A stretch of 64,000 nucleotides of DNA from Thauera carbonicopians. Lineage in GTDB: Bacteria; Pseudomonadota; Gammaproteobacteria; Burkholderiales; Rhodocyclaceae. Below are positions 7,282 to 60,866 of the stretch, one piece after another; within the stretch, counting starts at the first letter, position 1; every line of letters starts with the position of its first letter. The stretch covers positions 62,001-126,000 of the forward strand of contig NZ_JANUXN010000009.1 in the NCBI RefSeq assembly GCF_025699485.1, read 5' to 3'. The notes under the pieces are model-generated. The model was not told the DNA's origin, did not search any database, and saw nothing but the letters and a program-made list of their open reading frames with translations. Both the position numbers and the translations under genes were made by a program.

Positions 7282-8550
7282 TCAGAACAGGTTCATCGGA
7301 TAGTCGACGAACACGCGGATCTCGTTGCCTTCGCTGTTATAGGCGCGGGCGTCCTCCGAAACGCGCAGGAAGGACGCGCGCAGGCGGATGCTCAGATCCT
7401 TGGCCGCACCGCTCTGCACCTTGTAGCTCAACTGGTTGAACCATTCGCGTTCCTTGCCGCGGCTCGGCGCGCCGGCGTCGATGTTGTCGCCGCGGACGTA
7501 GGCGACGACGTAGCTCAGGCCGGGCACGCCGTATTCGGTGAAGTCCACCGCGTAGCTCAGTTGCCAGGAGCGCTCGTCCTTGGCGTTGAAATCGGACCAG
7601 AAGGAGTTGGCGAGGAAGATCGTGCTGCCGCCGTTGCCCACCCAGCCTTCGTCCTGGTAGAAGCCGTAGTTGAAGCCGACGTCGCCGCTGCTGCGCTGGT
7701 GCGCCACGGTGAAGGCGTGAGGGCCGGTGGCGTAGGTCGCGGCCAGGCTCCAGATGCGGTTCTTGCCTTCGTCGGCGTCGAACTTCCTGTCCTGCTTGGT
7801 GTTGTAGCCGTTGAAGTCGAGCGTGAGCGAATCACCCTGCGCCAGCGGGCGCACGTAGTTCAGGTTGATGTACTGGCGCTTCAGCACGTCCTCGATGTCC
7901 GATGCATACAGTGCGCCGCTGAACACTTCGTTGAACTGGTAGCGGCCGCCGATTAGGTCGATGGCCTTCAAGCCGCCGCCGTCGCGGCTTTCGTCGCTCT
8001 TGCGCGCTTCGGCGTGGAAGCGGCCGGCATGCAGCGTCAGGCCTTCGATTTCGTTCGAGGTGATCATCGTGCCGGTGAAGCTTTCCGGCATCAGGCGCGA
8101 GGCGTCGTGGTTGAGCACCGGCAGCGTCGGCCGCAGATCGCCGTAGGCGAGCACGGTGTTGGAGAAGCGCAGCTTGATCGAGGCGCCCGCCCGGGCGACA
8201 TCGCGCTCGACGTCGCCATTGTTGTCCACGCGGAAGAAGTCGATGCCCGCTGCGCCCGCCCGGCCGCGGCCGCTGTCGAGGCGGACGGCATACAGGCCGA
8301 AGGCATCGACGCCGAAACCGACCGTGCCCTGGGTGAAGCCCGAAGTGAAGTTCAGCACTGCACCCTGGCCCCATTCGGCCTTGTCCTGTCTGCCTTGCTT
8401 GTAATCACGGCTGATGTAGGCATTGCGCAGGAACAGGTCCAGCGAGCTGTCCTCGATGAAGCCGCGCGCTTCGGATTGGCCTGCGCCCATTGCCGGGGCC
8501 GTGGCCGCCAGGCTGAGGGCGATCGAACACGCCCATTTCTTCGACGTCAT
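7282..8550 (-). CDS. OprD-family outer-membrane porin
   Basis: A 422-residue exported protein with a signal peptide (about residues 1-25, ending APAMGAGQ). The mature N-terminus reads RGFIEDSSLDLFLRNAYISRDYKQG, then AEWGQGAVLNFTSGFTQGTVGFGVDAFGLYAV, both typical of OprD/OccD-type substrate-specific channels. It has many alternating beta-strand segments and ends in a terminal Phe (YPMNLF), as barrel proteins do. The start at 8550 has AAGGA upstream. OprD-family members usually import small organic acids or amino acids; the substrate here cannot be told. Confidence 0.9.
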   Translation of the reverse strand: MTSKKWACSIALSLAATAPAMGAGQSEARGFIEDSSLDLFLRNAYISRDYKQGRQDKAEWGQGAVLNFTSGFTQGTVGFGVDAFGLYAVRLDSGRGRAGAAGIDFFRVDNNGDVERDVARAGASIKLRFSNTVLAYGDLRPTLPVLNHDASRLMPESFTGTMITSNEIEGLTLHAGRFHAEARKSDESRDGGGLKAIDLIGGRYQFNEVFSGALYASDIEDVLKRQYINLNYVRPLAQGDSLTLDFNGYNTKQDRKFDADEGKNRIWSLAATYATGPHAFTVAHQRSSGDVGFNYGFYQDEGWVGNGGSTIFLANSFWSDFNAKDERSWQLSYAVDFTEYGVPGLSYVVAYVRGDNIDAGAPSRGKEREWFNQLSYKVQSGAAKDLSIRLRASFLRVSEDARAYNSEGNEIRVFVDYPMNLF

Positions 8551-8699
8551 TGTTTTTTCCTTGCTGTTGTTTGATGTGTGGCGGATGCGTTGCATCGAAT
8601 GCAGCCGCGATCTCCCCGGGCGCGATTTTCGCATGCTTCGCCGCAGGGGAACCGGATGTTTAGCCTCCCGGCCTTCTTTGACGACGCCAGGAGGCAGTA

Positions 8700-10019
8700 A
8701 TGAGGAACATGGACACGAGGCAGTGCCACGTGATCGAGCAATCGCCGGCCGCAACGGCTGCTACCGACGCCTATGCACTGCTGTTCGAACTGTGGCAGCG
8801 CTCGTCGCCCGGCCGCCGGGCAGCGACGGTCGCCAAGTACCGCAAGGTTCTGGATGCCTTCACCGCCTTCGCCGGCGGGATGCCGCTTGCGGATGTGCGC
8901 CGCAGGAATCTGCTGGCTTTCCGCGACCACCTGCTCGCATCGCGCCAGAGCCCGGTCACCGTCAGGCACAAGCTGGGCATCATCAGGACCCTGTTCGGAA
9001 CGGCGGTCGATCATGAACTGGCAGCGTCGAATCCGGCTGCCGAACTCAGAATGCAGGAAGCGGTGCCACGTAAAGCCCGCATCGCATTCACCGCGGACGA
9101 TCTGAACCGCCTGTTCCGCGCTGAAATCCACATGGCAGGCAAGCGCCCGAAAGGTGGCGGCAGGGAGGCTGCGTTCTGGCTGCCGCTGCTGGCCCTGTTC
9201 ACCGGCGCGCGGGTCGAGGAACTGGCGCAATTGCTGGTCAGCGACGTGCGCCATGCCCAGGGTCTGGGGCACTACCTGCAGATCAGCGACGACGCCGGGC
9301 ATGCGCAGCTCAAGAACCCGGCTTCGCGCAGGCGGATTCCGCTCCATGCGACGCTGCTGGATTGCGGCTTCCTGGATTACCTTGCCGGCCGGCAGGGGGT
9401 GGGGCTGCTGTTTCCCGATCTCCGGCCGAATCCGCGCGGCAAGCTCGGCGGTTACTTCAGCACCTTCTTTTCAGGCTATCTGCGCAGAAAGGTCGGCATC
9501 GGCGACGGCCGCAAGGTCTTCCACTCCTTCCGCCACACTTTCAAGGACACTTGCCGCGCGGTGGGCATGGAGGAGGAAGTGCATGACGCGCTGACCGGCC
9601 ATGCCGCACCGCGGGCGAGCCGCCGCTACGGCAACGAGCAGTATCCGCTCGAGCCTCTGTTCGAAGCCATTGCCCGCTTCGATATCCCCGGTCTGGACAT
9701 CGCGCACCTTCACACCAGGGCGCCCGCGCAGCCGCGCTACGGTACGGCTCTCCGGCCGGTCTCGGCCTATTATGGTGTCGTCATCGCCTTCGCCTTGCCC
9801 AGGCCGCGGCAGGACATCGCGCCTTTCGTGCTTGCCATCTGGCAGGGGCTCGAAGCGGGTTTCGACATCGCGTCGAATCAGCTTCTGTTCGGCGAATTGC
9901 CGCGCAGCAAGCGGGTGCTCGTCGATGCGTGGATCGAAATCCACCGGGAAGAGCTAATGGCCAATTGGTACTTAGGCAGGCAGACCGGCGAGTATTTCAG
10001 GGTCGAACCGCTGCGGTGA
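8700..10019 (+). CDS. Tyrosine recombinase with C-terminal DUF4160-like extension
   Basis: A 439-residue phage-integrase-family protein. An N-terminal SAM-like core-binding domain covers about residues 25-115. The catalytic domain covers about 130-335, with R171 (TGARVEEL), K205, H275 and R278 (HSFRHTF), H301 (LTGHA) and nucleophile Y310 (SRRYG), so it looks active. Residues about 353-439 are an added segment (SAYYGVVIAFALP, then LPRSKRVLVDAWIEIHREEL) resembling DUF4160, a small domain normally seen alone. AGGAGG precedes the ATG at 8700. No cargo genes, tRNA or obvious attachment repeats flank it. Confidence 0.85.
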   Translation: MRNMDTRQCHVIEQSPAATAATDAYALLFELWQRSSPGRRAATVAKYRKVLDAFTAFAGGMPLADVRRRNLLAFRDHLLASRQSPVTVRHKLGIIRTLFGTAVDHELAASNPAAELRMQEAVPRKARIAFTADDLNRLFRAEIHMAGKRPKGGGREAAFWLPLLALFTGARVEELAQLLVSDVRHAQGLGHYLQISDDAGHAQLKNPASRRRIPLHATLLDCGFLDYLAGRQGVGLLFPDLRPNPRGKLGGYFSTFFSGYLRRKVGIGDGRKVFHSFRHTFKDTCRAVGMEEEVHDALTGHAAPRASRRYGNEQYPLEPLFEAIARFDIPGLDIAHLHTRAPAQPRYGTALRPVSAYYGVVIAFALPRPRQDIAPFVLAIWQGLEAGFDIASNQLLFGELPRSKRVLVDAWIEIHREELMANWYLGRQTGEYFRVEPLR

Positions 10020-49569: not shown

Positions 49570-52299
<2,730 letters not shown>

Positions 52300-52301
52300 C
52301 C

Positions 52302-52425
52302 ACGGGTCGAGCGCAAGCCCTGCCGTTCATGGCGGGGTCGGCGAGACAAGCGTTCGTGGAGCCGAAGGCTTCACAAGCCCGCGGCGAGGAAGCCCCGGTT
52401 TTCAGGCTGGGGTGACTCACATGCA
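52302..52425 (+). repeat. Dispersed intergenic repeat, copy 2 (after secA)
   Basis: Begins 2 bases after the secA stop and matches the repeat at 30174-30285 along most of its length, with a short insertion (TTTTCAGGCTGG) near 52399-52410. Shared blocks include TTCATGGCGG, GTCGGCGAG, CCGAAGGCT and GGCGAGGAAGCCC. Both copies follow the 3' end of a conserved gene. Confidence 0.75.
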
Positions 52426-52886
52426 CGAGACTGCAAGTGCGGCGGGCATGGTGTTCGCCGCCCGTAGTCCTTGATGTCGAGGCGGCTGCAGGGGCTTTGT
52501 GTCGGATTCTTTTACGTTTTCGACGCCGCCGGCTTCAATACGAAGAAAAACAAATATGAGAATCAGCGGTTTGTATGATCTGGCCTGCTGATTGCTTGAC
52601 GCTCTCCATCACGATATTCCATAACTGAATTGCAAGATGGCATGAGACGGATCTGGCTTCAGGTTCGTCGGATGGCTGTGGGCGCAAGGCCCGCGCCTGC
52701 CGTCTTGTCGCCCCCATGCCCGCCCCATGCATGAGGGCGGGACGTGATGCCTTGCCCGGCGAATTCGGTGCGATGGCTTCATGAGCTGTGCGGGGCAGGC
52801 GAGTGTGTGTCACGGCCGTGAATCTCGATTCGGGAGAGACAGATGGCGGAGCATGCTGTTCGATCTGGCGCGATGGAAGGGCGGGC
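52426..52886 (+). other. Intergenic region between secA repeat and sigma-54 regulator
   Basis: About 460 bases without a recognisable gene. It includes an AT-rich stretch around 52505-52565 and a sigma-54 site at 52581-52596. The remainder may be a long leader of the regulator gene. Confidence 0.5.
52581..52596 (+). promoter_or_regulatory. Sigma-54 promoter upstream of the regulator gene
   Basis: TGGCCTGCTGATTGCT matches the -24/-12 consensus TGGCACG-N4-TTGCW: TGGC, G at the seventh position, and TTGCT with the required 10-base GG-to-GC spacing. It lies about 290 bp before the regulator ATG, so the leader would be long. It could drive the regulator and the barrel gene behind it. Confidence 0.6.
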
Positions 52887-54236
52887 ATGTCCGACAGGAC
52901 GTGCGTAAAGGCGTCGAGGCGGGCGATCGTGCTCGACCGTACTGGCTATGCCATAGCCGAGCTCGAAGCGCTTCACCTGTCCGGCTGGATGTTCCAGCGA
53001 GTGGCGACGATGGATGCCGCACGCAAGGCCCTGAGTTGCGATCCGCCACCGATCGGCCTCGTGGCCTTCGATTCCGGGCGGCCCTGGTCCCTCGGTGAGC
53101 TGGAGAGCGTGCTCCGGCGCCCCGACATCGAATGGATCGCGCTGCTCGGCCCGGATCTGCTGAACAGCGACCGACTGGAGCCGGAGCTGCTGCGCAGTTT
53201 CCATGATTTCCACTCCCGGCCCCTGGACAGGGAGCGGCTGTCGTGCACGCTGGGCCATGCCCATGGCAAGGTCGAGCTGTGCCGGCATGCCTTGGCACCC
53301 CGCCGCGAGTGCGGCGCATACGGCATGACGGGGACGAGCTCCGGAATGCGCCAGCTGTATCGTCAGATCGACAAGATCCTGACGGTCGATGCACCGGTAC
53401 TGATCGGTGGCGAATCCGGCACCGGCAAGGAGCTGGTTGCGCATGCCATTCATCAGTATTCGGTGCGCGCACGGGGGCCCTTCATCGCCATGAACTGCGG
53501 GGCGATCGCGCCCAGCCTGATCCAGTCCGAACTGTTCGGCCACGAGCGGGGCGCGTTCACCGGTGCCGCCCAGCGCAAGATCGGCAACATCGAGGCGGCC
53601 AACGGCGGGATTCTGTTTCTCGATGAGATCGGCGATCTGCCGCTGGAAATGCAGGCGAATCTGCTGCGTTTCCTGCAGGAGAAATGCATCACCCGGGTCG
53701 GTTCGACCGAGCGGGTGAAAGTCGATGTCCGGGTCATCGCGGCGACGCATGTCGACCTGGTGCGCGCGGTCACCCAAGGCCGTTTCCGCGAGGATCTGTA
53801 CTATCGCCTCAATGTCCTGCATCTCGGGCTGCCCGCCTTGCGCGAACGACGCGAGGACATTCCCCTGCTTGCCGAGTGCATCTTCGCCGAGCACCGGGAG
53901 CAGGCGGCTCCCCAGGTGCGCGGCTTCAGCAGCGTGGCACTCCAGGCCATGATGCGCTACGACTGGCCCGGCAACGTCAGAGAGCTGGTCAACCGGGTTC
54001 AGCGCGCGATGATCATGACCGAGAGCCGCCTGATCGGTCCAACCGACCTCGGGCTGTCGTCGGAACCGGAGCAGGGCATGCCGACCCTGGACGAAATCCG
54101 TACCAGGGTCGAGCGCGAACTGATCGAAACCAGCCTGAAGACGCACGGCAACAACGTTTCGGAGACGGCTCGCCGTCTGGGTATTTCCCGGGTCACCTTG
54201 TACCGCATGATCGACCGTCTGAAGATCGTCCTCTAG
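52887..54236 (+). CDS. Sigma-54-dependent Fis-family activator, VpsR-like
   Basis: A 449-residue enhancer-binding protein. The N-terminal domain (about residues 12-135) resembles the VpsR-type receiver-like domain; I do not see the standard receiver aspartate cluster. The AAA+ domain has Walker A GESGTGKE (175-182), GAFTGA (222-227, needed to contact sigma-54) and Walker B ILFLDE (242-247). The C-terminus is a Fis-type helix-turn-helix (NVSETARRLGISRVTLYRMI). It probably controls the neighbouring exported-protein operon. Start at ATG 52887, after GGAAGGG. Confidence 0.93.
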   Translation: MSDRTCVKASRRAIVLDRTGYAIAELEALHLSGWMFQRVATMDAARKALSCDPPPIGLVAFDSGRPWSLGELESVLRRPDIEWIALLGPDLLNSDRLEPELLRSFHDFHSRPLDRERLSCTLGHAHGKVELCRHALAPRRECGAYGMTGTSSGMRQLYRQIDKILTVDAPVLIGGESGTGKELVAHAIHQYSVRARGPFIAMNCGAIAPSLIQSELFGHERGAFTGAAQRKIGNIEAANGGILFLDEIGDLPLEMQANLLRFLQEKCITRVGSTERVKVDVRVIAATHVDLVRAVTQGRFREDLYYRLNVLHLGLPALRERREDIPLLAECIFAEHREQAAPQVRGFSSVALQAMMRYDWPGNVRELVNRVQRAMIMTESRLIGPTDLGLSSEPEQGMPTLDEIRTRVERELIETSLKTHGNNVSETARRLGISRVTLYRMIDRLKIVL

Positions 54237-54288
54237 CCGGCCCGTGGGCGGAGGTCTCGACGCAGTAGTTTTACTGGGAGCAACTGCG

Positions 54289-55602
54289 ATGAAGAAGACA
54301 CAGTCGTACCGAAGCAGATTTGCCCGTCCACTTCTCGGCGTGCTCGTCGCTGTGCTGGGGCAGCCGGTGCTTGCCGAGGATGCGGAAGAGGACGTCGGCA
54401 GCATCGCCGAGCGCTTCGAAGCCCAACTCCAGCAGATCGAGATCCTGAAGCGCGAACTGGCCAGGCAGGAGGCGGCACTCAAGGCCTTGCGCCGGGAAGT
54501 CGATCTGCGGCAGCGAGCTCGAGGGCAGGATGGGGCCCCTGCCCGGGCGGCGCCGATTGCCGTCGCCCAGGCGGATGCAGCACCAGTGGAGCCTGTCGGA
54601 CAAGCGCCGGAGGCGCCCGAGCGGCCGCCGGAGGTCGCGCCCATCTTCGAGCAGCCCGGAGTGCTGACACCGCCCGGAAAGTGGATCGTCGAGCCCTCGT
54701 TGCAGTACTCGTACTCGTCCAGCGACAGGATCGCCCTGGTCGGCTACACGATCATTCCGGCGATCCTGATCGGCTTGATCGACGTGCGCAACGTCAAATC
54801 GAACTCCTTCACGGCGACGCTTTCGGTGCGCCGGGGCATCACCAACCGTTTCGAGCTCGAGGCGCGTATTCCATATGTTTACCGCTACGACAATACGCGC
54901 GGACGGGAGATCCTGGATCCCGAACGGGTACGCGAGTTCTATTCCGATCAGAAAGGGCAGGGGATCGGTGACGTCGAACTGATCGGTCGCTACCAGCTCA
55001 ACGACGGCGGCAGCGATTCGCCGTATTACATCGCTTCGCTGCGCTTCAAGGCCCGCACCGGCAAGGATCCCTTCGAGGTGCCGACCAGCCTGACGGTCGA
55101 CCCGTCCGACCCGAATACCGGCGCGAGGACGGGCATGCAGCGTGATCTGCCGACCGGCTCCGGCTTCTACTCGCTGACACCCGGGCTGACCGTGCTCATT
55201 CCGTCCGACCCGGCCGTTTTTTTTGGCGGGATCAGCTATCAGTACAGCTTCAAGCGCAAGAACGTGACGCCGAACCTGGTCGGCGATGTCGATCCGGCCG
55301 ATTATGCCTATTCCTCGATCCAGCCCGGCGGCGTGCTCGGCTTCAACTTCGGCATGGGGCTGGCACTGAACGAACGTTCGTCGTTCAGCATCGGTTACGA
55401 CCATCTGTCGGTCGGCAAGACCGACGCCAGGTATGCCGACGGCCAGCGTGCCGAAGGCGTGCGCGTCCAGCTCGGCACGCTACTGCTGGGTTATTCCTAC
55501 AAGCTCGATTCGATGCGGACCGTCAATCTGTCGCTCGGCGTCGGCGTCACACGCGACACGCCCGACGTGCAGATGACGCTGCGCATGCCTTTCTCGCTGT
55601 AG
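54289..55602 (+). CDS. Outer-membrane beta-barrel with N-terminal coiled coil (FapF-like)
   Basis: A 437-residue exported protein. The signal peptide ends VLA at residue 29. A coiled coil covers about residues 36-75 (AERFEAQLQQIEILKRELAR). A Pro/Ala-rich linker follows, then a barrel-like domain from about residue 120 (GKWIVEPSLQYSYSSSDRIA) to the terminal FSL. The barrel resembles the phenol-degradation MetA-like (PF13557) group. A coiled coil before a barrel is the architecture of FapF, the amyloid exporter of Pseudomonas. It follows the activator after 52 bases; GGGAG precedes ATG 54289. Confidence 0.8.
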   Translation: MKKTQSYRSRFARPLLGVLVAVLGQPVLAEDAEEDVGSIAERFEAQLQQIEILKRELARQEAALKALRREVDLRQRARGQDGAPARAAPIAVAQADAAPVEPVGQAPEAPERPPEVAPIFEQPGVLTPPGKWIVEPSLQYSYSSSDRIALVGYTIIPAILIGLIDVRNVKSNSFTATLSVRRGITNRFELEARIPYVYRYDNTRGREILDPERVREFYSDQKGQGIGDVELIGRYQLNDGGSDSPYYIASLRFKARTGKDPFEVPTSLTVDPSDPNTGARTGMQRDLPTGSGFYSLTPGLTVLIPSDPAVFFGGISYQYSFKRKNVTPNLVGDVDPADYAYSSIQPGGVLGFNFGMGLALNERSSFSIGYDHLSVGKTDARYADGQRAEGVRVQLGTLLLGYSYKLDSMRTVNLSLGVGVTRDTPDVQMTLRMPFSL

Positions 55603-55614
55603 GGCGCAAGCGAA

Positions 55615-55647
55615 ACGGGCCGGCTCATCGGGCATGAGCCGGCCCGT
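55615..55647. terminator. Convergent hairpin between barrel gene and exported-protein operon
   Basis: A perfect 14-bp stem, ACGGGCCGGCTCAT / ATGAGCCGGCCCGT, with a 5-base loop, lying between two convergent genes. It has no strong T run, but its position suggests termination of both transcripts. Confidence 0.7.
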
Positions 55648-55696
55648 GCTGCAGCCGGCAGGGCAAGCCTCGTCCGGTCGGCCTGGAACGGCGAAA

Positions 55697-56263
55697 TCAG
55701 CGCATCTGCGCCGCGCGCGTCACGGCTTCCTGCATCGCCTGCTCCATGCGCACGCCCTGCATGACTTCCAGGCTATTGACCGTTGCGCTGATCGTCGTGA
55801 TGGTCTGCAGCTTCTGGTTGTCGAGCGAATTCTGGACGATCGTGGCAAGCGAGTTGGCCGGTAGAAGGTGTGAAATGTTGTTCGGCCCGCTCTGTATCAA
55901 TGCCAGAGCGCTGCCGGGCGACAGGGGGATGCCGGCGGCGGACTGGCCGCCAGCCGGATTCGGGCCGTCCAGGCGCAGGCTCGTGGTGCTGTGCAGGACG
56001 CCGTTGATCAGCACGACGCGTTCGATGCCGAAACGCATCTGCAGGCCGCCGGGGGTTTCGAAGCCGCCGCGCAGGGTGTCGAGGCGGGCGTCGGCGATCG
56101 TCGCCGCGGCCAGCAGATGATCCAGCCGGTCCTGCCGCGCCGTTGCCCCCGTTTCGGCGAAATCCGCTCCGCTGGCGGGCTGGCTCGCCGCGTACGCGCA
56201 CAGGCCGGCAGCGATCATGGCCAGCAGGGGCGTTCGTGTGTGGTGGAGGGGCCGGCTGGGCAT
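55697..56263 (-). CDS. Exported protein with LDTxRGG motif, last gene of sigma-54 operon
   Basis: A 188-residue protein with a signal peptide (about residues 1-33). At residues 61-67 it carries LDTLRGG, almost identical to LDTQRGG in the 119-residue protein of the same operon. Hydrophobic residues at -12 (I56), -7 (L61) and -4 (L64) relative to G67 fit a double-glycine cleavage site. The rest includes GGLQMRFGIERVVLINGVLH and a polar Ser/Asn/Gln-rich C-terminal region (SLATIVQNSLDNQKLQTITT). No known enzyme domain. Confidence 0.75.
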   Translation of the reverse strand: MPSRPLHHTRTPLLAMIAAGLCAYAASQPASGADFAETGATARQDRLDHLLAAATIADARLDTLRGGFETPGGLQMRFGIERVVLINGVLHSTTSLRLDGPNPAGGQSAAGIPLSPGSALALIQSGPNNISHLLPANSLATIVQNSLDNQKLQTITTISATVNSLEVMQGVRMEQAMQEAVTRAAQMR

Positions 56264-56280
56264 GGTGTGTGCTCCGTCGC

Positions 56281-56979
56281 TCAGAAATCCACCATGCTGG
56301 GCCGGGTCAGGCTGTGTCGCACGATGTTGTCCTGATGGGAGCGCACCGGAGCGTGCGGCCGGACGCTCCAGTCGTCTGCGTGGTTGAAGCGCGCCAGCTC
56401 CATGTGACTGGTCACGACCAGCAGGATGCCGTTGGTCCAGTGGCGCTCGAAGTCGGTGCGTGCGACCACGCGCGTACCCATCGCCGGATCGCCGAGCAGG
56501 ACGTCGCCGTCGCGCACGCCCTTGATGACGACGAAGTGGGCGTAGCCGTTTTCGTTGATCAGGGCAATCGCGGGAATGCCCACGCCGGCGAGCTCGTCCA
56601 GGCTCGCCTCGACGCCATTGGTTTCGAAGCCGCGGCTGTCGAGATAGCGCTTCATGTCCAGCATCGAGAAGCCGTCGTGGCGGATCTTCTCCTGGTCGCC
56701 GTGCTCGAACATGACCTGGAAGACGGACGATTCATCGACCTCCCAGCCGTAGTGATGCGTCAGCAGCGTGGCAACGGCCGCCGAGCCGCAACTGAAATCG
56801 TATTGCTGGCGAAGCGTCGCGAGAAAGCGGTTGCCCTTCATGCTCACGGTGGGGACCGAAAGCGTCCCGCCCAGCGGTGCCGTCATCTGCAGGCGTTCGG
56901 CATGAGCAGCGGTGCCACCGAGCAGAACCGCCAGCATCGCGCAGGGCATCAGAGTATGGCGCAGGGAGCCGGCGAACAT
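56281..56979 (-). CDS. Periplasmic C39-family cysteine peptidase (FapD-like)
   Basis: A 232-residue exported peptidase. The signal peptide ends at about residue 27 (TAAHA). The C39 catalytic site is visible: Q59 and C64 (QQYDFSCGSAA), H148 (NGYAHFVVIKG) and D164 (LLGDPAMG). There is no ABC-transporter part, so it is a stand-alone enzyme, like FapD of the Fap amyloid system. C39 peptidases cleave after double-glycine motifs; two neighbours carry such motifs. Confidence 0.9.
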   Translation of the reverse strand: MFAGSLRHTLMPCAMLAVLLGGTAAHAERLQMTAPLGGTLSVPTVSMKGNRFLATLRQQYDFSCGSAAVATLLTHHYGWEVDESSVFQVMFEHGDQEKIRHDGFSMLDMKRYLDSRGFETNGVEASLDELAGVGIPAIALINENGYAHFVVIKGVRDGDVLLGDPAMGTRVVARTDFERHWTNGILLVVTSHMELARFNHADDWSVRPHAPVRSHQDNIVRHSLTRPSMVDF

Positions 56980-56990
56980 GGCAGCGGACC

Positions 56991-57350
56991 TCACTGCACC
57001 TGGACGTTGAGGATCACGGCGTTCTGGATCAGCACGCCGTTGCCCGAATTCTGGATCACCATGGGCAGTCCGGCTGCGCCTGCGAGCGCATTGTCGGACA
57101 CGATGTTGTGGCCGGTGACGAGGTCGTACGCTTGAACTTCGCTGACCGCACCCGAAGCGTGAATTTCGCTCAGATGCACGTCGCTGCCGCCGCGCTGGGT
57201 ATCCAGCACTTCCGTATCGATGATCCGTCCGAAGCCGGTCAGCGATGCAGGTGAACCCTCGGGTTCGCTGGCGTGCGCGCTGTCTGGCGCAGAGCATGAG
57301 AAGGCCAGGGCGATTCCTAGTGCGACCATGATTTGCAAAGCGGATTGCAT
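56991..57350 (-). CDS. Small exported protein with LDTxRGG and Fap-repeat-like tail
   Basis: A 119-residue protein with a signal peptide (about residues 1-27). It has LDTQRGG at 49-55, where I44, L49 and the GG pair give double-glycine spacing. Residues 82-112 align without gaps to residues 556-586 of the large glycine-rich protein next to it (13 of 31 identical, sharing ALA, AG, QN and G-x-G-x-L-x-Q). If cut at GG, a polar, beta-prone fragment of about 64 residues would remain. Function not established. Confidence 0.75.
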   Translation of the reverse strand: MQSALQIMVALGIALAFSCSAPDSAHASEPEGSPASLTGFGRIIDTEVLDTQRGGSDVHLSEIHASGAVSEVQAYDLVTGHNIVSDNALAGAAGLPMVIQNSGNGVLIQNAVILNVQVQ

Positions 57351-57416
57351 GATGCTGCCCCTCCATGAAGTGTGCAGCAGGGCTTGGCAGCGATGCCGCC
57401 GCCAAGCCCCTCTCGC

Positions 57417-59204
57417 TTACCGCAGCGTCATGTTCGCCTGCACATTGACGCTCTGTTGCACCAGCGCACCGATGCCCGTGTTCTGGGCTGCGACGGTGAT
57501 GCCCGCAGAGTTGGCAAGGGCGCTGCCCGCGATGGTGTTGGACATGTCGAACGTCCCCGCATTGACTGCCACGGAACCGCCTGCGCCGCCGGATCCACCG
57601 GTGCCCCCCACGCCCGAACCACCGGTGCCGGCACCGGCATAGGCCGCACCGCCTGCACCGCCTGCGCCGCCCTGGCCGCCCTGGCCGGAGCCGCCTGCGC
57701 CGCCGGCAGCAGCCGTGGCCGCACCGCCGCTCGCATCTCCGCTCGACGCAGTGCTGGTGGCATCGCCGCCAGTGCCGCTACCTGCGGTCGCCGTGCCGCC
57801 GGCCGCCGTGCCGCCTGCGCCGCCGCTGGCCGAACCGGCGTTCGCGGTGCCACTGGTCGCCGTGCCGCCATTGCCGCCGTAGCCGGCAGTATTGGTGGCC
57901 GAGCCTGCCTGACCGCCATTGGCCGCGCTGTTGCCGGCCGCCGCGCTGGCGCCGCCGGAGCTGCCTGCACCGCCCGTGCCGCTGCCCTCGCCTCCGGCCA
58001 CCGAGACTGCCCCGGTCATGCCGCCAGAGGAGGTGGCACTGCCACCTGCGCCGCCAGCTCCACCCGCGGCGCTGGGGCTGTTCGAGGCATTGGCTGCATC
58101 GTTGCCGCGGCCATTCGCCCCGGCCGTGGCCGAGCCAGCCTTGGCGAAGCTGCCGGCACCGTCGGCGCTGCCTCCGCTTGCGCCGCTGCCGCCTGCCGAG
58201 CTACCGCCTCTGGCGCCGCCGCCGGCGCCGAAGGCTCCGCCGCCACTGGCGCTGTCGTACGCCTTGGCACCGCCGCCGCTCGAGCTGGCGTCGCCACCGC
58301 CGCCTGCCAGCGCGCCCATGGCGCCACCACCGTCGCCGCCATTGGCACCACGGGCGCCGCCGCTGCCCGCATCACCACCGATGCCTGTGCCGCCGCCGCC
58401 AGCGATGGCCGAACCGTTGCGTGCACCGCCGCCGCTGCTCATGCCTCCAGCGGACAGGGAATCCGAATCGCCGCCGATGGCATTTCCACCGTATGCGCTG
58501 CCGCCAGCGGCGCCGCTGCCGCCGTTGCCGCCGAAGGCCTTGCCACCGTCACCGCCGGCTGCACCCTTGGCATTGCCGCCCAGGCCCACGCCACCATTGC
58601 CGCCGTAGGCCTTGCCGCCGTTGCCGCCATTGGCGCTGCCGAGGTTGCCGGCGCTGTTGCCGAGGCCATGCACGCTGATTCGGGTCACCGTGCCGTCGAG
58701 CCTGGACAGCGCTACGACCGAGGTCCTGTTGAAGGAGTCGGCCAGATTCGATGTCGCATTGCCGATGCCTGCCGCGGCCGAACCGGCGGCGTTGGCCGCC
58801 GCCCTGGCAGACGTGTCGCTTCTGCTCAGATTGGTGCTCTTGCTGCTGCTCTTCGAGATCGAGGTCGTACTGTTGTCGGACTTGTCGATCGAGGTCGTGC
58901 TGTTGTCGGATCTGTCGATCGACGTGTTTCTCACTCGATTGTCCGACTGATCCCTGCTGTCCGCATTGCTGATCGAGACGTTCTTGACTCGATTGTCGGA
59001 GTTGTTGCTGTTGTCGGTCGACCATGTGGCACTCGAGTACTCGTTGGCGAGTGCGCCAGTGCCACCGCTCTGGTTCGAATGTGCCTCGGCGTTCTGCTGT
59101 ACGTCGCCGTCGTGTTGCGCCAGGTTGTTGGTGGGGTTCGCCATGGCTGGCGAGGAAAGACCGAATGCGAGAGCAATCGCGCTTGCGAGCAGACTGTGTT
59201 TCAT
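57417..59204 (-). CDS. Large glycine-rich secreted protein, first gene of sigma-54 operon
   Basis: A 595-residue exported protein. The signal peptide ends AMA at 22. A Ser/Asn/Asp-rich region at about 25-130 carries tandem short units (DRSDNSTTSI, DKSDNSTTSI). Then comes a GG-x-GG low-complexity region at about 195-550 with an Ala/Ser/Asn mix (GGNGGKAYGGNGGVGLGGNA). The end (556-595) matches the tail of the small neighbour. It has no adhesin or autotransporter barrel domain. A surface fibre or matrix role is inferred. A sigma-54 site lies about 64 bases upstream of the ATG at 59204. Confidence 0.8.
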   Translation of the reverse strand: MKHSLLASAIALAFGLSSPAMANPTNNLAQHDGDVQQNAEAHSNQSGGTGALANEYSSATWSTDNSNNSDNRVKNVSISNADSRDQSDNRVRNTSIDRSDNSTTSIDKSDNSTTSISKSSSKSTNLSRSDTSARAAANAAGSAAAGIGNATSNLADSFNRTSVVALSRLDGTVTRISVHGLGNSAGNLGSANGGNGGKAYGGNGGVGLGGNAKGAAGGDGGKAFGGNGGSGAAGGSAYGGNAIGGDSDSLSAGGMSSGGGARNGSAIAGGGGTGIGGDAGSGGARGANGGDGGGAMGALAGGGGDASSSGGGAKAYDSASGGGAFGAGGGARGGSSAGGSGASGGSADGAGSFAKAGSATAGANGRGNDAANASNSPSAAGGAGGAGGSATSSGGMTGAVSVAGGEGSGTGGAGSSGGASAAAGNSAANGGQAGSATNTAGYGGNGGTATSGTANAGSASGGAGGTAAGGTATAGSGTGGDATSTASSGDASGGAATAAAGGAGGSGQGGQGGAGGAGGAAYAGAGTGGSGVGGTGGSGGAGGSVAVNAGTFDMSNTIAGSALANSAGITVAAQNTGIGALVQQSVNVQANMTLR

Positions 59205-59627
59205 GGCGTCCTCCACTGGTTGTCGGCAGGGCCCGTGCATGATGCAGAACCCCTGCAGAGTGGCGTCAGCAAACGCTGTGCCAGGCATGCCAAAGTGGCT
59301 GGATGCGAGATGTACGGAGTTGTTTCGGCGAACGGGCGGTGCAGGTGAGAAGCCTGCGGGAGGGGCCGATTGTCCATTTTCTGTACAGCGGTGCCGGACG
59401 GTGCCGCATGGTCCGGCCGCCGGAACGCGTGTCGTGGCGCGGCTTGTCGCTTTGAAAGGGGCGAAAGGGCCGGAGTCCGTTGCTGTAACGCTGGTGATAC
59501 ACGTCAGGGATATCGCCCTGGCCCTGCGTGCCAGGCTGCGACAGCGTCGATGAAGGGCTGATCCGCTATCATTCGACCTTATTTCGCGTCGGGCACCTCT
59601 GCCCGGCAAGCCTGCAAGGAGCCTCGC
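59205..59627. other. Divergent intergenic region with sigma-54 site
   Basis: 423 bases between the leftward glycine-rich gene and argJ. It holds the minus-strand sigma-54 promoter at 59268-59283 and, presumably, activator sites upstream of it (a loose inverted repeat TGTCC-N7-TGTACA lies near 59368-59385). A TATCAT near 59567 could be the argJ -10. No gene seen. Confidence 0.5.
59268..59283 (-). promoter_or_regulatory. Sigma-54 promoter of the exported-protein operon
   Basis: On the minus strand TGGCACAGCGTTTGCT matches the -24/-12 consensus TGGCACR-N4-TTGCW at every conserved position. Transcription would start near 59257, about 53 bases before the ATG of the glycine-rich gene. Confidence 0.85.
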
Positions 59628-60866
59628 GTGGCCGTCAATCTGAATACTCCGAATCCCGTCGATCTGCTGCCGGTTGCCGGCGTCCGTCTGGGTGTTGCCG
59701 AAGCCGGCATCCGCAAGGCCGCCCGCCGCGACCTGACCGTGATCGAACTCGCCGAAGGCAGCCGCGCGGCGGGCGTGTTCACCCGCAACCGCTTCTGCGC
59801 GGCCCCGGTGCAGGTGTGCCGTGAACATCTGCCATCCGGGGCGATCCGGGCGATGGTGATCAACACCGGCAACGCCAATGCCGGTACCGGCGAGCCCGGC
59901 CTGGCCGCGGCGCGCAGTACCTGCGCGGCGCTGGCGAAGGAAATGAACATCGCTGCCGGGCAGGTGCTGCCGTTCTCGACCGGCGTGATCCTGGAGCCGC
60001 TGCCGGTCGACCGGCTGATCGCCGCCCTGCCGCGCGCGATCGCCGATCTGCGGACCGACGGCTGGTTCGATGCCGCGCACGCGATCATGACCACCGACAC
60101 GCTGGCCAAGGCGGTGTCGAAGCAGGTGCAGATCGGCGGCAGCACTGTGACGCTGACCGGCATCAGCAAGGGCGCCGGCATGATCCGGCCGAACATGGCG
60201 ACGATGCTCGGCTTCCTCGCCTGCGACGCCGCCGTCGCCCAGCCGGTGCTCGATGCGCTGATCCGGGAAGCGGCCGATCTGTCCTTCAACAGCATCACAG
60301 TCGATGGCGACACTTCGACCAACGATTCCTTCATCCTGATCGCCACCGGCCGGGCCGGCAACGCCGAAATCACCGCCGCCAGCGGCGCCGACTACCAGGC
60401 GCTGCGCGATGCGGTAGTCGAGGTGTCGATCGCGCTGGCGCAGGCCATCGTGCGCGACGGCGAGGGCGCGACCAAGTTCATGACGGTCGCGGTCGAAGGC
60501 GGCCGTGATCGCGACGAGTGCCGCAAGGTCGGCTATGCGGTGGCGCATTCGCCGCTGGTGAAGACGGCCTTCTTTGCCTCGGATCCCAACCTCGGCCGCA
60601 TCCTGGCTGCGATCGGCTATGCCGGCATCGACGACCTGGAGGTGTCGAAGCTGCGCGTGTGGCTCGGCAATCCGGACGAAGCCGTGCTGGTCGCCGAGCA
60701 CGGCGGCCGGGCGGCGTCCTACGTCGAAGAGGCGGGCGCGCGCATCATGGAGCACGCCGAACTGTCGGTGCGCATCGACCTCGCTCGCGGCCAGGCTGCC
60801 GCGACGGTGTGGACCTGCGACTTCTCGTACGACTACGTCAGGATCAACGCGGATTACCGTTCCTGA
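59628..60866 (+). CDS. argJ: Bifunctional glutamate N-acetyltransferase/ornithine acetyltransferase ArgJ
   Basis: A 412-residue ArgJ. It has [36 protein letters not shown], the self-cleavage motif [13 protein letters not shown] (Thr becomes the new N-terminus and nucleophile) and [19 protein letters not shown]. It recycles the acetyl group in arginine synthesis. GTG start at 59628 after AAGGAG. Confidence 0.97.

What the first reader, a model, noticed from the sequence alone, without database searches (positions are those of the whole stretch)
52581..59283. Fap-like amyloid/fibre export system with a different part list
Seen: a coiled-coil outer-membrane barrel, a stand-alone Sec-exported C39 peptidase, two small exported proteins and a 595-residue glycine-rich exported protein, next to a sigma-54 activator and closed by a convergent hairpin. 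Known: the Pseudomonas Fap functional-amyloid system has a coiled-coil barrel (FapF), a C39 peptidase (FapD) and low-complexity fibre proteins. Here the fibre candidate is a GG-x-GG protein rather than a FapC-type repeat protein, and gene order and orientation differ. Inferred: a diverged or new class of surface-fibre secretion with its own substrate type.
Basis: partly seen in the sequence, partly recalled or inferred. Interest (0 to 1): 0.85.

Follow-up and report, generated by a model that had tools for sequence, protein, structure and literature searches.

The report
Sister system of Fap fibre export
This is a widespread but apparently unnamed relative of the Pseudomonas amyloid-export machine; two of its exported proteins carry a clear cutting signal for the machine's own protease, which suggests where the still unexplained Fap protease cuts.

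Summary
A FapF-related barrel, a FapD-related C39 peptidase, two small exported proteins and a 595-residue Gly-rich exported protein lie between two sigma-54-like sites. It is not a plain fap operon: no FapA, FapB or FapC match was found and the peptidase clade is sister to FapD (100/99). The set recurs: 91 of 102 loci, in beta-, gamma- and deltaproteobacterial records, keep the order Gly-rich, P119, C39, P188. Among 121 family genomes P119 was found in exactly the 11 with the close C39. FapE has the motif in register as RG[RK], 18 of 18. This predicts the FapD site, called unknown in 2017-2018. (2) The fibre candidate ends in a module split by a 354-residue Gly-rich loop; P119 is a stand-alone copy of it. 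(3) The operon has a conserved sigma-54 promoter, and the locus is a 7.3-kb difference from two congeners at secA-argJ. Cleavage and fibre are inferred; structure prediction was off.

The parts
52300..59624 (.). extent of the difference between secA and argJ that holds the whole module
   Evidence: blastn of the window against two congeners: similarity stops at 52299 (secA stop) and resumes at 59625 (G103) or 59629 (G048); the gap there is about 20 bp (G103) and about 110 bp (G048)
52581..52596 (+). sigma-54-like -24/-12 site upstream of the activator gene (score 13.2 of 14.9)
   Evidence: not conserved upstream of the activator in relatives (6 of 60 at 12.5 or more, against 1 of 60 shuffled), so tentative
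52788..54236 (+). sigma-54 enhancer-binding activator with VpsR-like N-terminal domain (start codon uncertain)
   Evidence: Pfam; an activator of this family lies within about 6.5 kb in 59 of 102 loci
54289..55602 (+). FapF-related outer-membrane barrel with N-terminal heptad (coiled-coil) region
   Evidence: NCBIfam FapF E 1e-43; profile of 72 window-type barrels hits PDB FapF at E 3.6e-56
55615..55647 (.). convergent hairpin, 14-bp stem, between the barrel and the minus-strand operon
55697..56263 (-). P188: FapE-like exported protein with double-glycine leader; predicted mature part 121 aa
   Evidence: leader and first mature residues align with FapE
56063..56098 (-). P188 leader IADARLDTLRGG; predicted cut after Gly67
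   Evidence: RGG in 87 of 87 rows
56281..56979 (-). C39 peptidase with Sec-like signal, FapD-related; presumed catalytic Cys64, His148 and Asp164 invariant in 13 aligned rows
56991..57350 (-). P119: stand-alone assembly module with double-glycine leader; predicted mature part 64 aa
57186..57221 (-). P119 leader IDTEVLDTQRGG; predicted cut after Gly55
   Evidence: Leu at -7 and Gly at -2 in 86 of 86 rows; Gly at -1 in 78 of 86
57417..59204 (-). 595-aa exported major substrate (fibre candidate)
58653..58718 (-). first half of the assembly module in the major substrate (VVALSRLDGTV...)
   Evidence: family profile aligned with the first half of the contiguous module, 0 of 60 shuffles as good
57567..58628 (-). 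354-residue Gly-rich loop (41% Gly) between the two halves of the module
57420..57566 (-). second half of the assembly module (NTIAGS...AQNTGIGALVQQSVNVQANMTLR)
   Evidence: family profile prob 98.6, E 7e-16 against the contiguous module, 0 of 60 shuffles as good
59268..59283 (-). sigma-54 -24/-12 promoter TGGCACAGCGTTTGCT, 63 nt upstream of the major-substrate start
   Evidence: score 14.4 of 14.9; 72 of 102 major genes score 12.5 or more against 3 of 102 shuffled

Best explanation
This is a sister class of the Fap system: a machine under sigma-54 control that exports, and most likely assembles, a surface protein fibre or matrix. All products except the activator cross the inner membrane by Sec (signals seen by eye). 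In the periplasm the C39 peptidase removes bacteriocin-type double-glycine leaders from two minor subunits, P119 (after Gly55) and the FapE-like P188 (after Gly67). The freed P119, a stand-alone copy of the major protein's assembly module, acts as nucleator or base. The FapF-type barrel, with its periplasmic coiled coil, passes the subunits to the surface, where the major protein joins through its split C-terminal module and displays its large low-complexity loop. Shown by sequence: gene set, order, homologies, leaders, promoter, co-occurrence. Inferred: cleavage, export path, nucleation, fibre.
For: Barrel: 72 of 72 family members match the NCBIfam FapF model (best E 9e-55; all 72 also match FilC, best E 1e-25). 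A profile built without any FapF hits only FapF in the PDB below E 0.05 (E 3.6e-56). Peptidase: FapD E 4e-42; the tree puts 41 window-type rows (100/99) beside 16 rows from FapE-bearing loci (99/97), joined at 88/80. Leaders; among 724 other signal-like ORFs of the same loci 4 have the RGG form and 48 the looser GG/GA form, against RGG in 98 of 98 P188 and 69 of 99 P119 by the same pattern. P188 to FapE with leader: score 37.5, maximum of 100 column shuffles 18.5. P119 to P188: prob 97, E 1.7e-10 with leader, prob 90, E 1.9e-6 without. P119 to the contiguous module: prob 97.5, E 8.5e-12. Co-occurrence. Promoter. In Pseudomonas, FapD Cys38 is needed for FapC secretion and FapE peptides of the first ~70 residues are missing (PMC5557850, passages).
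Against: No structure, expression or secretion data. P119 lacks GG in 8 of 86 rows (GK 3, GM 2, GR 2, GA 1), so cleavage may be dispensable there or the specificity looser. P119 leaders lack a clear hydrophobic residue at -4 (Gln 19, Leu 19 of 86). P119 with leader does not align significantly with FapE (8 of 100 shuffles as good), and P188 does not on the mature part alone. The major substrate is not FapC-like (37 of 100 shuffles as good), so homology does not imply amyloid. An activator is near the module in only 59 of 102 loci. The profile E-values are for a comparison of two profiles, not for a database.
Confidence: 0.72

Rival explanations
1. It is an ordinary, diverged fap operon whose FapA-C and FapE have drifted beyond recognition.
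For: FapF and FapD homology over most of their length; P188 is FapE-like at its start; P119 shows a weak resemblance to FapC repeats (1 of 100 shuffles as good). Missing the NCBIfam equivalog cut-offs is no strong sign, since the clear fap locus L040 misses three of four of them too.
Against: The peptidase clade is separate from FapD with full support. fap-type loci exist in the same family (L040: FapC over its cut-off, with FapD, FapE and FapF matches; L039: FapC and FapE matches), and one genome, G132, holds both types of peptidase. The major substrate shows no FapC repeat. Gene order differs.
Confidence: 0.12
2. A peptide-export system: the peptidase frees small diffusible peptides (bacteriocin or signal), and the Gly-rich protein is a side component.
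For: The leaders are of bacteriocin type; the predicted mature P119 is only 64 aa.
Against: P119 is homologous to the assembly module of the major proteins and P188 to the fibre-associated FapE; no ABC exporter domain among the six proteins; the major protein's module is found in 92 of 102 loci.
Confidence: 0.08
3. The exported product is a non-amyloid coat, glue or gel made by the low-complexity protein, assembled as above but without cross-beta structure.
For: The body is Gly-rich (median 28% Gly over 109 proteins) or, in the low-Gly ones read, Asn/Ser/Asp-rich (8 of 13 read), unlike FapC; only the module is kept.
Against: The module has the Q/N-rich, short-strand look of amyloid repeats (by eye); machinery relatives export amyloid.
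Confidence: 0.35
4. The barrel is a COG4313/MetA-type uptake channel and the neighbouring genes serve something else.
For: 12 of 72 barrels match Phenol_MetA_deg (best E 3e-8) and 26 the autotransporter barrel (best E 2e-5).
Against: All 72 match FapF, with a far better best E-value; the window barrel has no Pfam match at E 0.01; a barrel lies beside the module in 95 of 102 loci.
Confidence: 0.03

Closest known systems
Fap functional amyloid system of Pseudomonas (fapABCDEF)
   Same: FapF-type barrel with N-terminal heptad region, exported FapD-type C39 peptidase, a FapE-like protein whose leader and first mature residues align, Sec-exported substrates; fap-type loci L039 and L040 also have a related sigma-54 activator nearby.
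   Different: No FapA, FapB or FapC match; major substrate with its own split module and Gly-rich loop; an added minor subunit P119; GG at the leader instead of RG[RK]; barrel apart from the minus-strand operon here (opposite strand in 52 and same strand in 43 of 95 loci with a barrel); separate peptidase clade.
Fil 'putative pilus system' of Acinetobacter
   Same: Stand-alone C39 peptidase (FilB E 8e-33) and barrel (FilC E 9e-15).
   Different: Different partners (a FadL-type FilD named in NCBIfam; FilE and FilF recalled); no P119, P188 or assembly module found in the Fil-type locus read (L196); its peptidase falls outside the Fap plus window group. The gene taken as FilA only has a leader-like stretch ending in GQ.
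Peptidase-containing ABC exporters of double-glycine peptides (PCAT, ComA)
   Same: C39 fold and double-glycine leader recognition; best PDB match E 1e-10.
   Different: Here the peptidase is free and predicted to sit in the periplasm, the cut would follow Sec transport, and no ABC part is fused to it.

Membership tests
Fap system | FapF-type 12-strand barrel with plug and periplasmic trimeric coiled coil | tested here: inconclusive
   Sequence match across barrel and N-terminus but below the FapF equivalog cut-off (149 against 700 bits); the fap-type barrel of L040 also misses it (506 bits). Strand count, plug and trimer not tested: structure prediction unavailable.
Fap system | FapD: exported C39 peptidase with catalytic residues | tested here: met
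   Cys64, His148 and Asp164 invariant in 13 rows; FapD model E 4e-42 but 144 bits against a cut-off of 330, which the L040 enzyme also misses (299 bits).
Fap system | FapC/FapB fibre subunits with Fap repeats | tested here: not met
   No NCBIfam match; profile comparison with 24 FapC-type repeats: major protein's C-terminus 37 of 100 shuffles as good, P119 1 of 100.
Fap system | FapE | tested here: inconclusive
   No match of P188 to the NCBIfam FapE model (50 rows); homology over about 33 columns around the leader, not significant over the mature part alone.
Fap system | FapA | tested here: inconclusive
   None of the six proteins matched a model named FapA; whether the libraries hold one was not checked.
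Fap system | single operon in the order A-B-C-D-E-F | tested here: not met
   Major substrate-P119-C39-P188 in 91 of 102 loci, barrel on the opposite strand in 52 of 95.
Fil pilus system (Acinetobacter) | FilB and FilC with their Fil partners | tested here: not met
   FilB and FilC models matched far below cut-off (114 of 475 and 55 of 630 bits); no other Fil-named model matched any of the six proteins in the lists shown.
Double-glycine leader substrates of C39 peptidases | Gly at -2, Gly/Ala at -1, hydrophobic residues at -4, -7, -12 (rule recalled) | tested here: met
   P188: -2 and -1 Gly 87 of 87, -7 Leu/Met 87 of 87, -12 V/L/A/I/M 87 of 87. P119: -2 Gly 86 of 86, -1 Gly or Ala 79 of 86, -7 Leu 86 of 86, but -4 variable.
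Functional amyloid | cross-beta fibres, Congo red or ThT binding | not testable with these tools
   No wet-lab data.

The most novel reading that the evidence does not exclude
Across the Fap family and its sister class, a periplasmic C39 peptidase licenses fibre export by cutting a bacteriocin-type leader after Sec transport. It frees a nucleator (P119) and a FapE-type starter at a fixed [hydrophobic]xxxx[L/M]xxx[R]G[G/R/K] site. The fibre protein is modular: a conserved C-terminal assembly module accepts interchangeable low-complexity bodies, in the window a 354-residue Gly-rich loop inserted inside the module itself. This would name the unknown FapD cutting site and define a general, re-programmable surface-display system.
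Probability: 0.5. Interest if true: 0.82.

Novelty: new variant of a known kind. Interest (0 to 1): 0.68.

Why it matters
The substrate and cutting site of FapD, without which FapC was not secreted in the published assay, are called unknown in the 2017 and 2018 papers that I read in part, and the 2017 paper says that Fap proteins lack canonical C39 sequences. The sister system carries such sequences plainly, and aligning it with FapE picks out one predicted site that mass spectrometry can test directly. It also suggests that FapD/FapF-type machinery serves more than FapC amyloid: the 2013 survey met FapD and FapF relatives outside fap operons and counted them as non-specific hits of two larger families (PMC3792158, passages). 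A module that accepts Gly-rich or Asn-rich bodies is of interest for engineered living materials.

Tried and rejected
Rejected readings. Ordinary fap operon: separate clade, no FapC. Fil system: and L196. MetA channel. Sigma-54 control of the activator gene itself: the site at 52581 is not conserved (6 of 60 against 1 of 60 shuffled).

Led nowhere. P188 against FapE on the mature parts alone: E 0.02, prob 2. P119 with leader against FapE: 8 of 100 shuffles as good. Major protein's C-terminus against FapC repeats: 37 of 100; P188: 84 of 100. First half of the module against P119 alone: 1 of 60 shuffles as good. Rfam in 52200-59700: no match at gathering score. Edges of the insertion: no direct repeats within either edge stretch; GC 0.63-0.70 throughout. 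FapE in plasmids: one Acidithiobacillus plasmid. The held gene tables are empty for the C. metallidurans, A. baumannii and Photobacterium stretches. No named Pseudomonas FapE was read here, so the register in Pseudomonas itself is untested.

Cautions on counts. Gene calls are mechanical ORFs. The signal-peptide rule is my own crude one (it accepted 88 of 99 P119 and 66 of 98 P188). The promoter score is a hand-made consensus with mononucleotide shuffles as control; its 102 genes are major genes with at least 300 nt upstream, paralogues included, and not the same set as the 102 loci. In one search the order counted 81 of 102 because over-long frames upset the sort; sorted by stop codon it is 91 of 102. 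The leader rows come from L029-L123 and the window, without the 14 class loci and without three divergent loci whose P119-like genes my model missed (L119, L121, L122: all three end in RGR). Alignment A5, used for the P119 searches, holds the window and rows from the 10 other positive family genomes, so those hits are by construction; the 110 negatives are the informative part, and only a capped number of first-look candidates per genome is scored. Ten of 86 Gly-rich proteins did not fit my pattern for the first half of the module. FapE ORFs were picked by a pattern that includes the motif, but each of the 16 loci gave exactly one, so none was dropped.
Full report
WHAT IS THERE. Between secA (49570-52299, +) and argJ (59628-60866, +) lie six genes in two converging units. 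Plus strand: a sigma-54 activator with a VpsR-like domain (52788-54236) and a 437-aa barrel (54289-55602). Minus strand, in transcription order: a 595-aa protein (59204-57417), a 119-aa protein P119 (57350-56991), a C39 peptidase (56979-56281) and a 188-aa protein P188 (56263-55697). The units meet at a 14-bp hairpin, 55615-55647 (z -3.95). All except the activator begin with a Sec-like signal peptide, judged by eye.

MACHINERY. The barrel matches NCBIfam FapF (E 1e-43) and more weakly FilC; the peptidase matches FapD (E 4e-42) and FilB. Both stay below the equivalog cut-offs (149 of 700 and 144 of 330 bits). That alone says little, since the clear fap locus L040 also misses the cut-offs for FapD, FapE and FapF and passes only that for FapC. 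A profile of 72 window-type barrels that contains no FapF finds only FapF in the PDB below E 0.05 (E 3.6e-56). All 72 match the FapF model, and all 72 also match FilC, less strongly by best E-value. Presumed catalytic Cys64, His148 and Asp164 of the peptidase are invariant in 13 rows. In a tree of 67 peptidases the 41 window-type rows form one group (100/99), the 16 rows from loci with FapE another (99/97), and the two are joined at 88/80, away from 10 Fil-type and other stand-alone C39 enzymes.

HOW CONSTANT THE SET IS. In 10 of 10 close family relatives the same six genes stand in the same arrangement. Over 102 loci (10 from the family, 78 named, 14 from the class) P119 is present in 97, P188 in 97, the barrel in 95, the major protein's C-terminal module in 92, the activator in 59, and all four of module, P119, P188 and barrel in 87; several of the misses lie on short contigs. 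The order major-P119-C39-P188 holds in 91 of 102. Hosts of loci with the set include Zoogloeaceae, Burkholderiaceae, Oxalobacteraceae, Comamonadaceae, Lysobacteraceae, Rhodanobacteraceae and Geobacteraceae (record titles, some families). Alphaproteobacterial members are more diverged: L121 and L122 have the peptidase with P119-like leader genes by eye, and a Polymorphobacter plasmid has P119, C39, P188 and barrel matches, all but the peptidase annotated as hypothetical proteins (L197). In 121 genomes of the window's family P119 was found in 11, exactly the 11 with the close peptidase. In 369 class genomes P119 was found in 13, all among the 15 with C39 bits over 240. Of the two others, G270 has a weak P119 match (E 7e-5), and G429 has a Gly-rich protein and P119-like and P188-like genes by eye (L179, L177).

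THE LEADERS. P188 reads [V]xxxx[L]DxxRGG|F: over 87 rows, RGG in 87, Leu or Met at -7 in 87, Phe at +1 in 81. P119 has Leu at -7 and Gly at -2 in 86 of 86, Arg at -3 in 76, Gly at -1 in 78 (Lys 3, Met 2, Arg 2, Ala 1). This is the spacing of bacteriocin double-glycine leaders (rule recalled; the 2017 Fap paper quotes a GG consensus). Among 724 other signal-like ORFs of the same loci, 4 carry the RGG form and 48 the looser GG/GA form; by the same RGG pattern 98 of 98 P188 and 69 of 99 P119 are found (crude rule). FapE from fap-type loci (16 matches in 15 of 369 class genomes, plus L039 and L040) shows the same motif in register, ending RG[RK]|[YF]: 18 of 18. P188 and FapE profiles that include the leader align over the leader and the start of the mature part up to FG[IV]E with score 37.5; 100 column shuffles reach at most 18.5. 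On mature parts alone there is no significant match, and P119 with leader does not align with FapE beyond chance (8 of 100). In three divergent loci (L119, L121, L122) the P119-like protein ends its leader in RGR, while P188 of L119 and the P188-like ORF of L121 have RGG, so one enzyme may accept both. Rouse and colleagues wrote that Fap proteins lack canonical C39 sequences and that the target of FapD is unclear, with mass spectra pointing to processing of FapE within its first ~70 residues (PMC5557850, passages; PMC6173800, sections 6 and 8). The same paper also considers cutting of FapF. The present alignment turns the FapE idea into one predicted site.

THE MAJOR PROTEIN. Its constant part is not the GG-x-GG body. 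Thirteen relatives have under 12% Gly; the eight that I read are rich in Asn, Ser and Asp and end in the same module, there contiguous or nearly so. In the Gly-rich proteins the second half of the module (prob 98.6, E 7e-16; 0 of 60 shuffles as good) is separated from the first half (0 of 60 shuffles as good) by the Gly-rich stretch, 354 residues in the window. The first half was located by pattern in 76 of 86. Mature P119 aligns with nearly the whole contiguous module (63 columns, prob 97.5, E 8.5e-12) and with the major proteins' C-terminus (0 of 100 shuffles as good). P119 and P188 are related with the leader (prob 97, E 1.7e-10) and without it (prob 90, E 1.9e-6). Similarity to FapC repeats is weak for P119 (1 of 100 shuffles as good) and absent for the major protein's C-terminus (37 of 100).

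CONTROL AND GAIN. TGGCACAGCGTTTGCT lies 63 nt before the start of the major gene. Sites scoring 12.5 or more of 14.9 precede 72 of 102 major genes against 3 of 102 shuffled regions, mostly 50-120 nt upstream. Two of two sampled congeners lack a peptidase and a P119 match and have secA and argJ side by side (gaps of about 20 and about 110 bp), while the window has 7.3 kb there. No direct repeats within the edge stretches, no integrase among the six proteins scanned and no composition jump, so the mode and direction of the change are open.

HOW IT WORKS, MOST LIKELY. Sec export of all parts; periplasmic trimming of P119 and P188 by the C39 enzyme; passage through the FapF-type barrel; P119 as base or nucleator for the major protein through the shared module; display of the low-complexity loop. 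Homologies, motifs and co-occurrence are shown; cleavage, export, nucleation and fibre are inferred.

KNOWN OR NEW. The 2013 survey found that FapD and FapF profiles hit far more proteins than fap operons explain (96% and 69% non-specific) and took these as two larger families (PMC3792158, passages). The 2018 review reports co-located fapD and fapF homologues in five further phyla (PMC6173800; its figure S1 not seen). A 2025 survey of GTDB kept only clusters with FapB/C repeats (PMC12392863, passages). My searches of the open library (listings) and term look-ups in PMC12520557 (no occurrence), PMC6173795 and PMC3684753 (passages) brought no description of this gene set or of a FapE cutting site; subscription papers are not covered. 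Fifty P119 rows match no NCBIfam or Pfam family and fifty P188 rows only one stray NCBIfam hit. I rate it a new variant of a known kind.

Noticed in passing
L041:9692-10099 (-), beside the C39 gene at 8022-8711: A stand-alone C39 peptidase with a signal-like start lies near a 135-aa protein with a GA-type leader (LSTDEMKETEGA) and a small bacteriocin-like tail, and a barrel-like protein by eye: perhaps Sec export plus periplasmic trimming of a peptide.
   Followed up: no
L196:5661-6530 (+), Acinetobacter Fil-type locus: The gene before the C39 gene begins with a leader-like stretch (MDDAALSAATGQ) in the same register as FapE, P119 and P188; L184 has a similar one (MDESAMSDVSGQ). Other C39-barrel systems may share the trick.
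   Followed up: partly
G132, contig C11, near 248993 and 338440: One genome carries both the window-type peptidase (module in L170) and a second peptidase next to a FapE match on the same contig.
   Followed up: no
L076 (Massilia kyonggiensis): Two copies of the major-P119-C39-P188 set stand in tandem; several other loci (for example L035, L046, L049, L060) have two major-protein genes.
   Followed up: no
window 52300-59624 against G048 and G103: The module is a clean 7.3-kb difference between congeners at the secA-argJ junction, without direct repeats within its edge stretches.
   Followed up: partly
Cupriavidus loci (L077, L101, L103, L109, L195) and Rhodanobacteraceae loci (L105, L107, L114, L116): No sigma-54 activator was found in the stretch held although a sigma-54-like site precedes the major gene, so an activator may act from elsewhere.
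   Followed up: no
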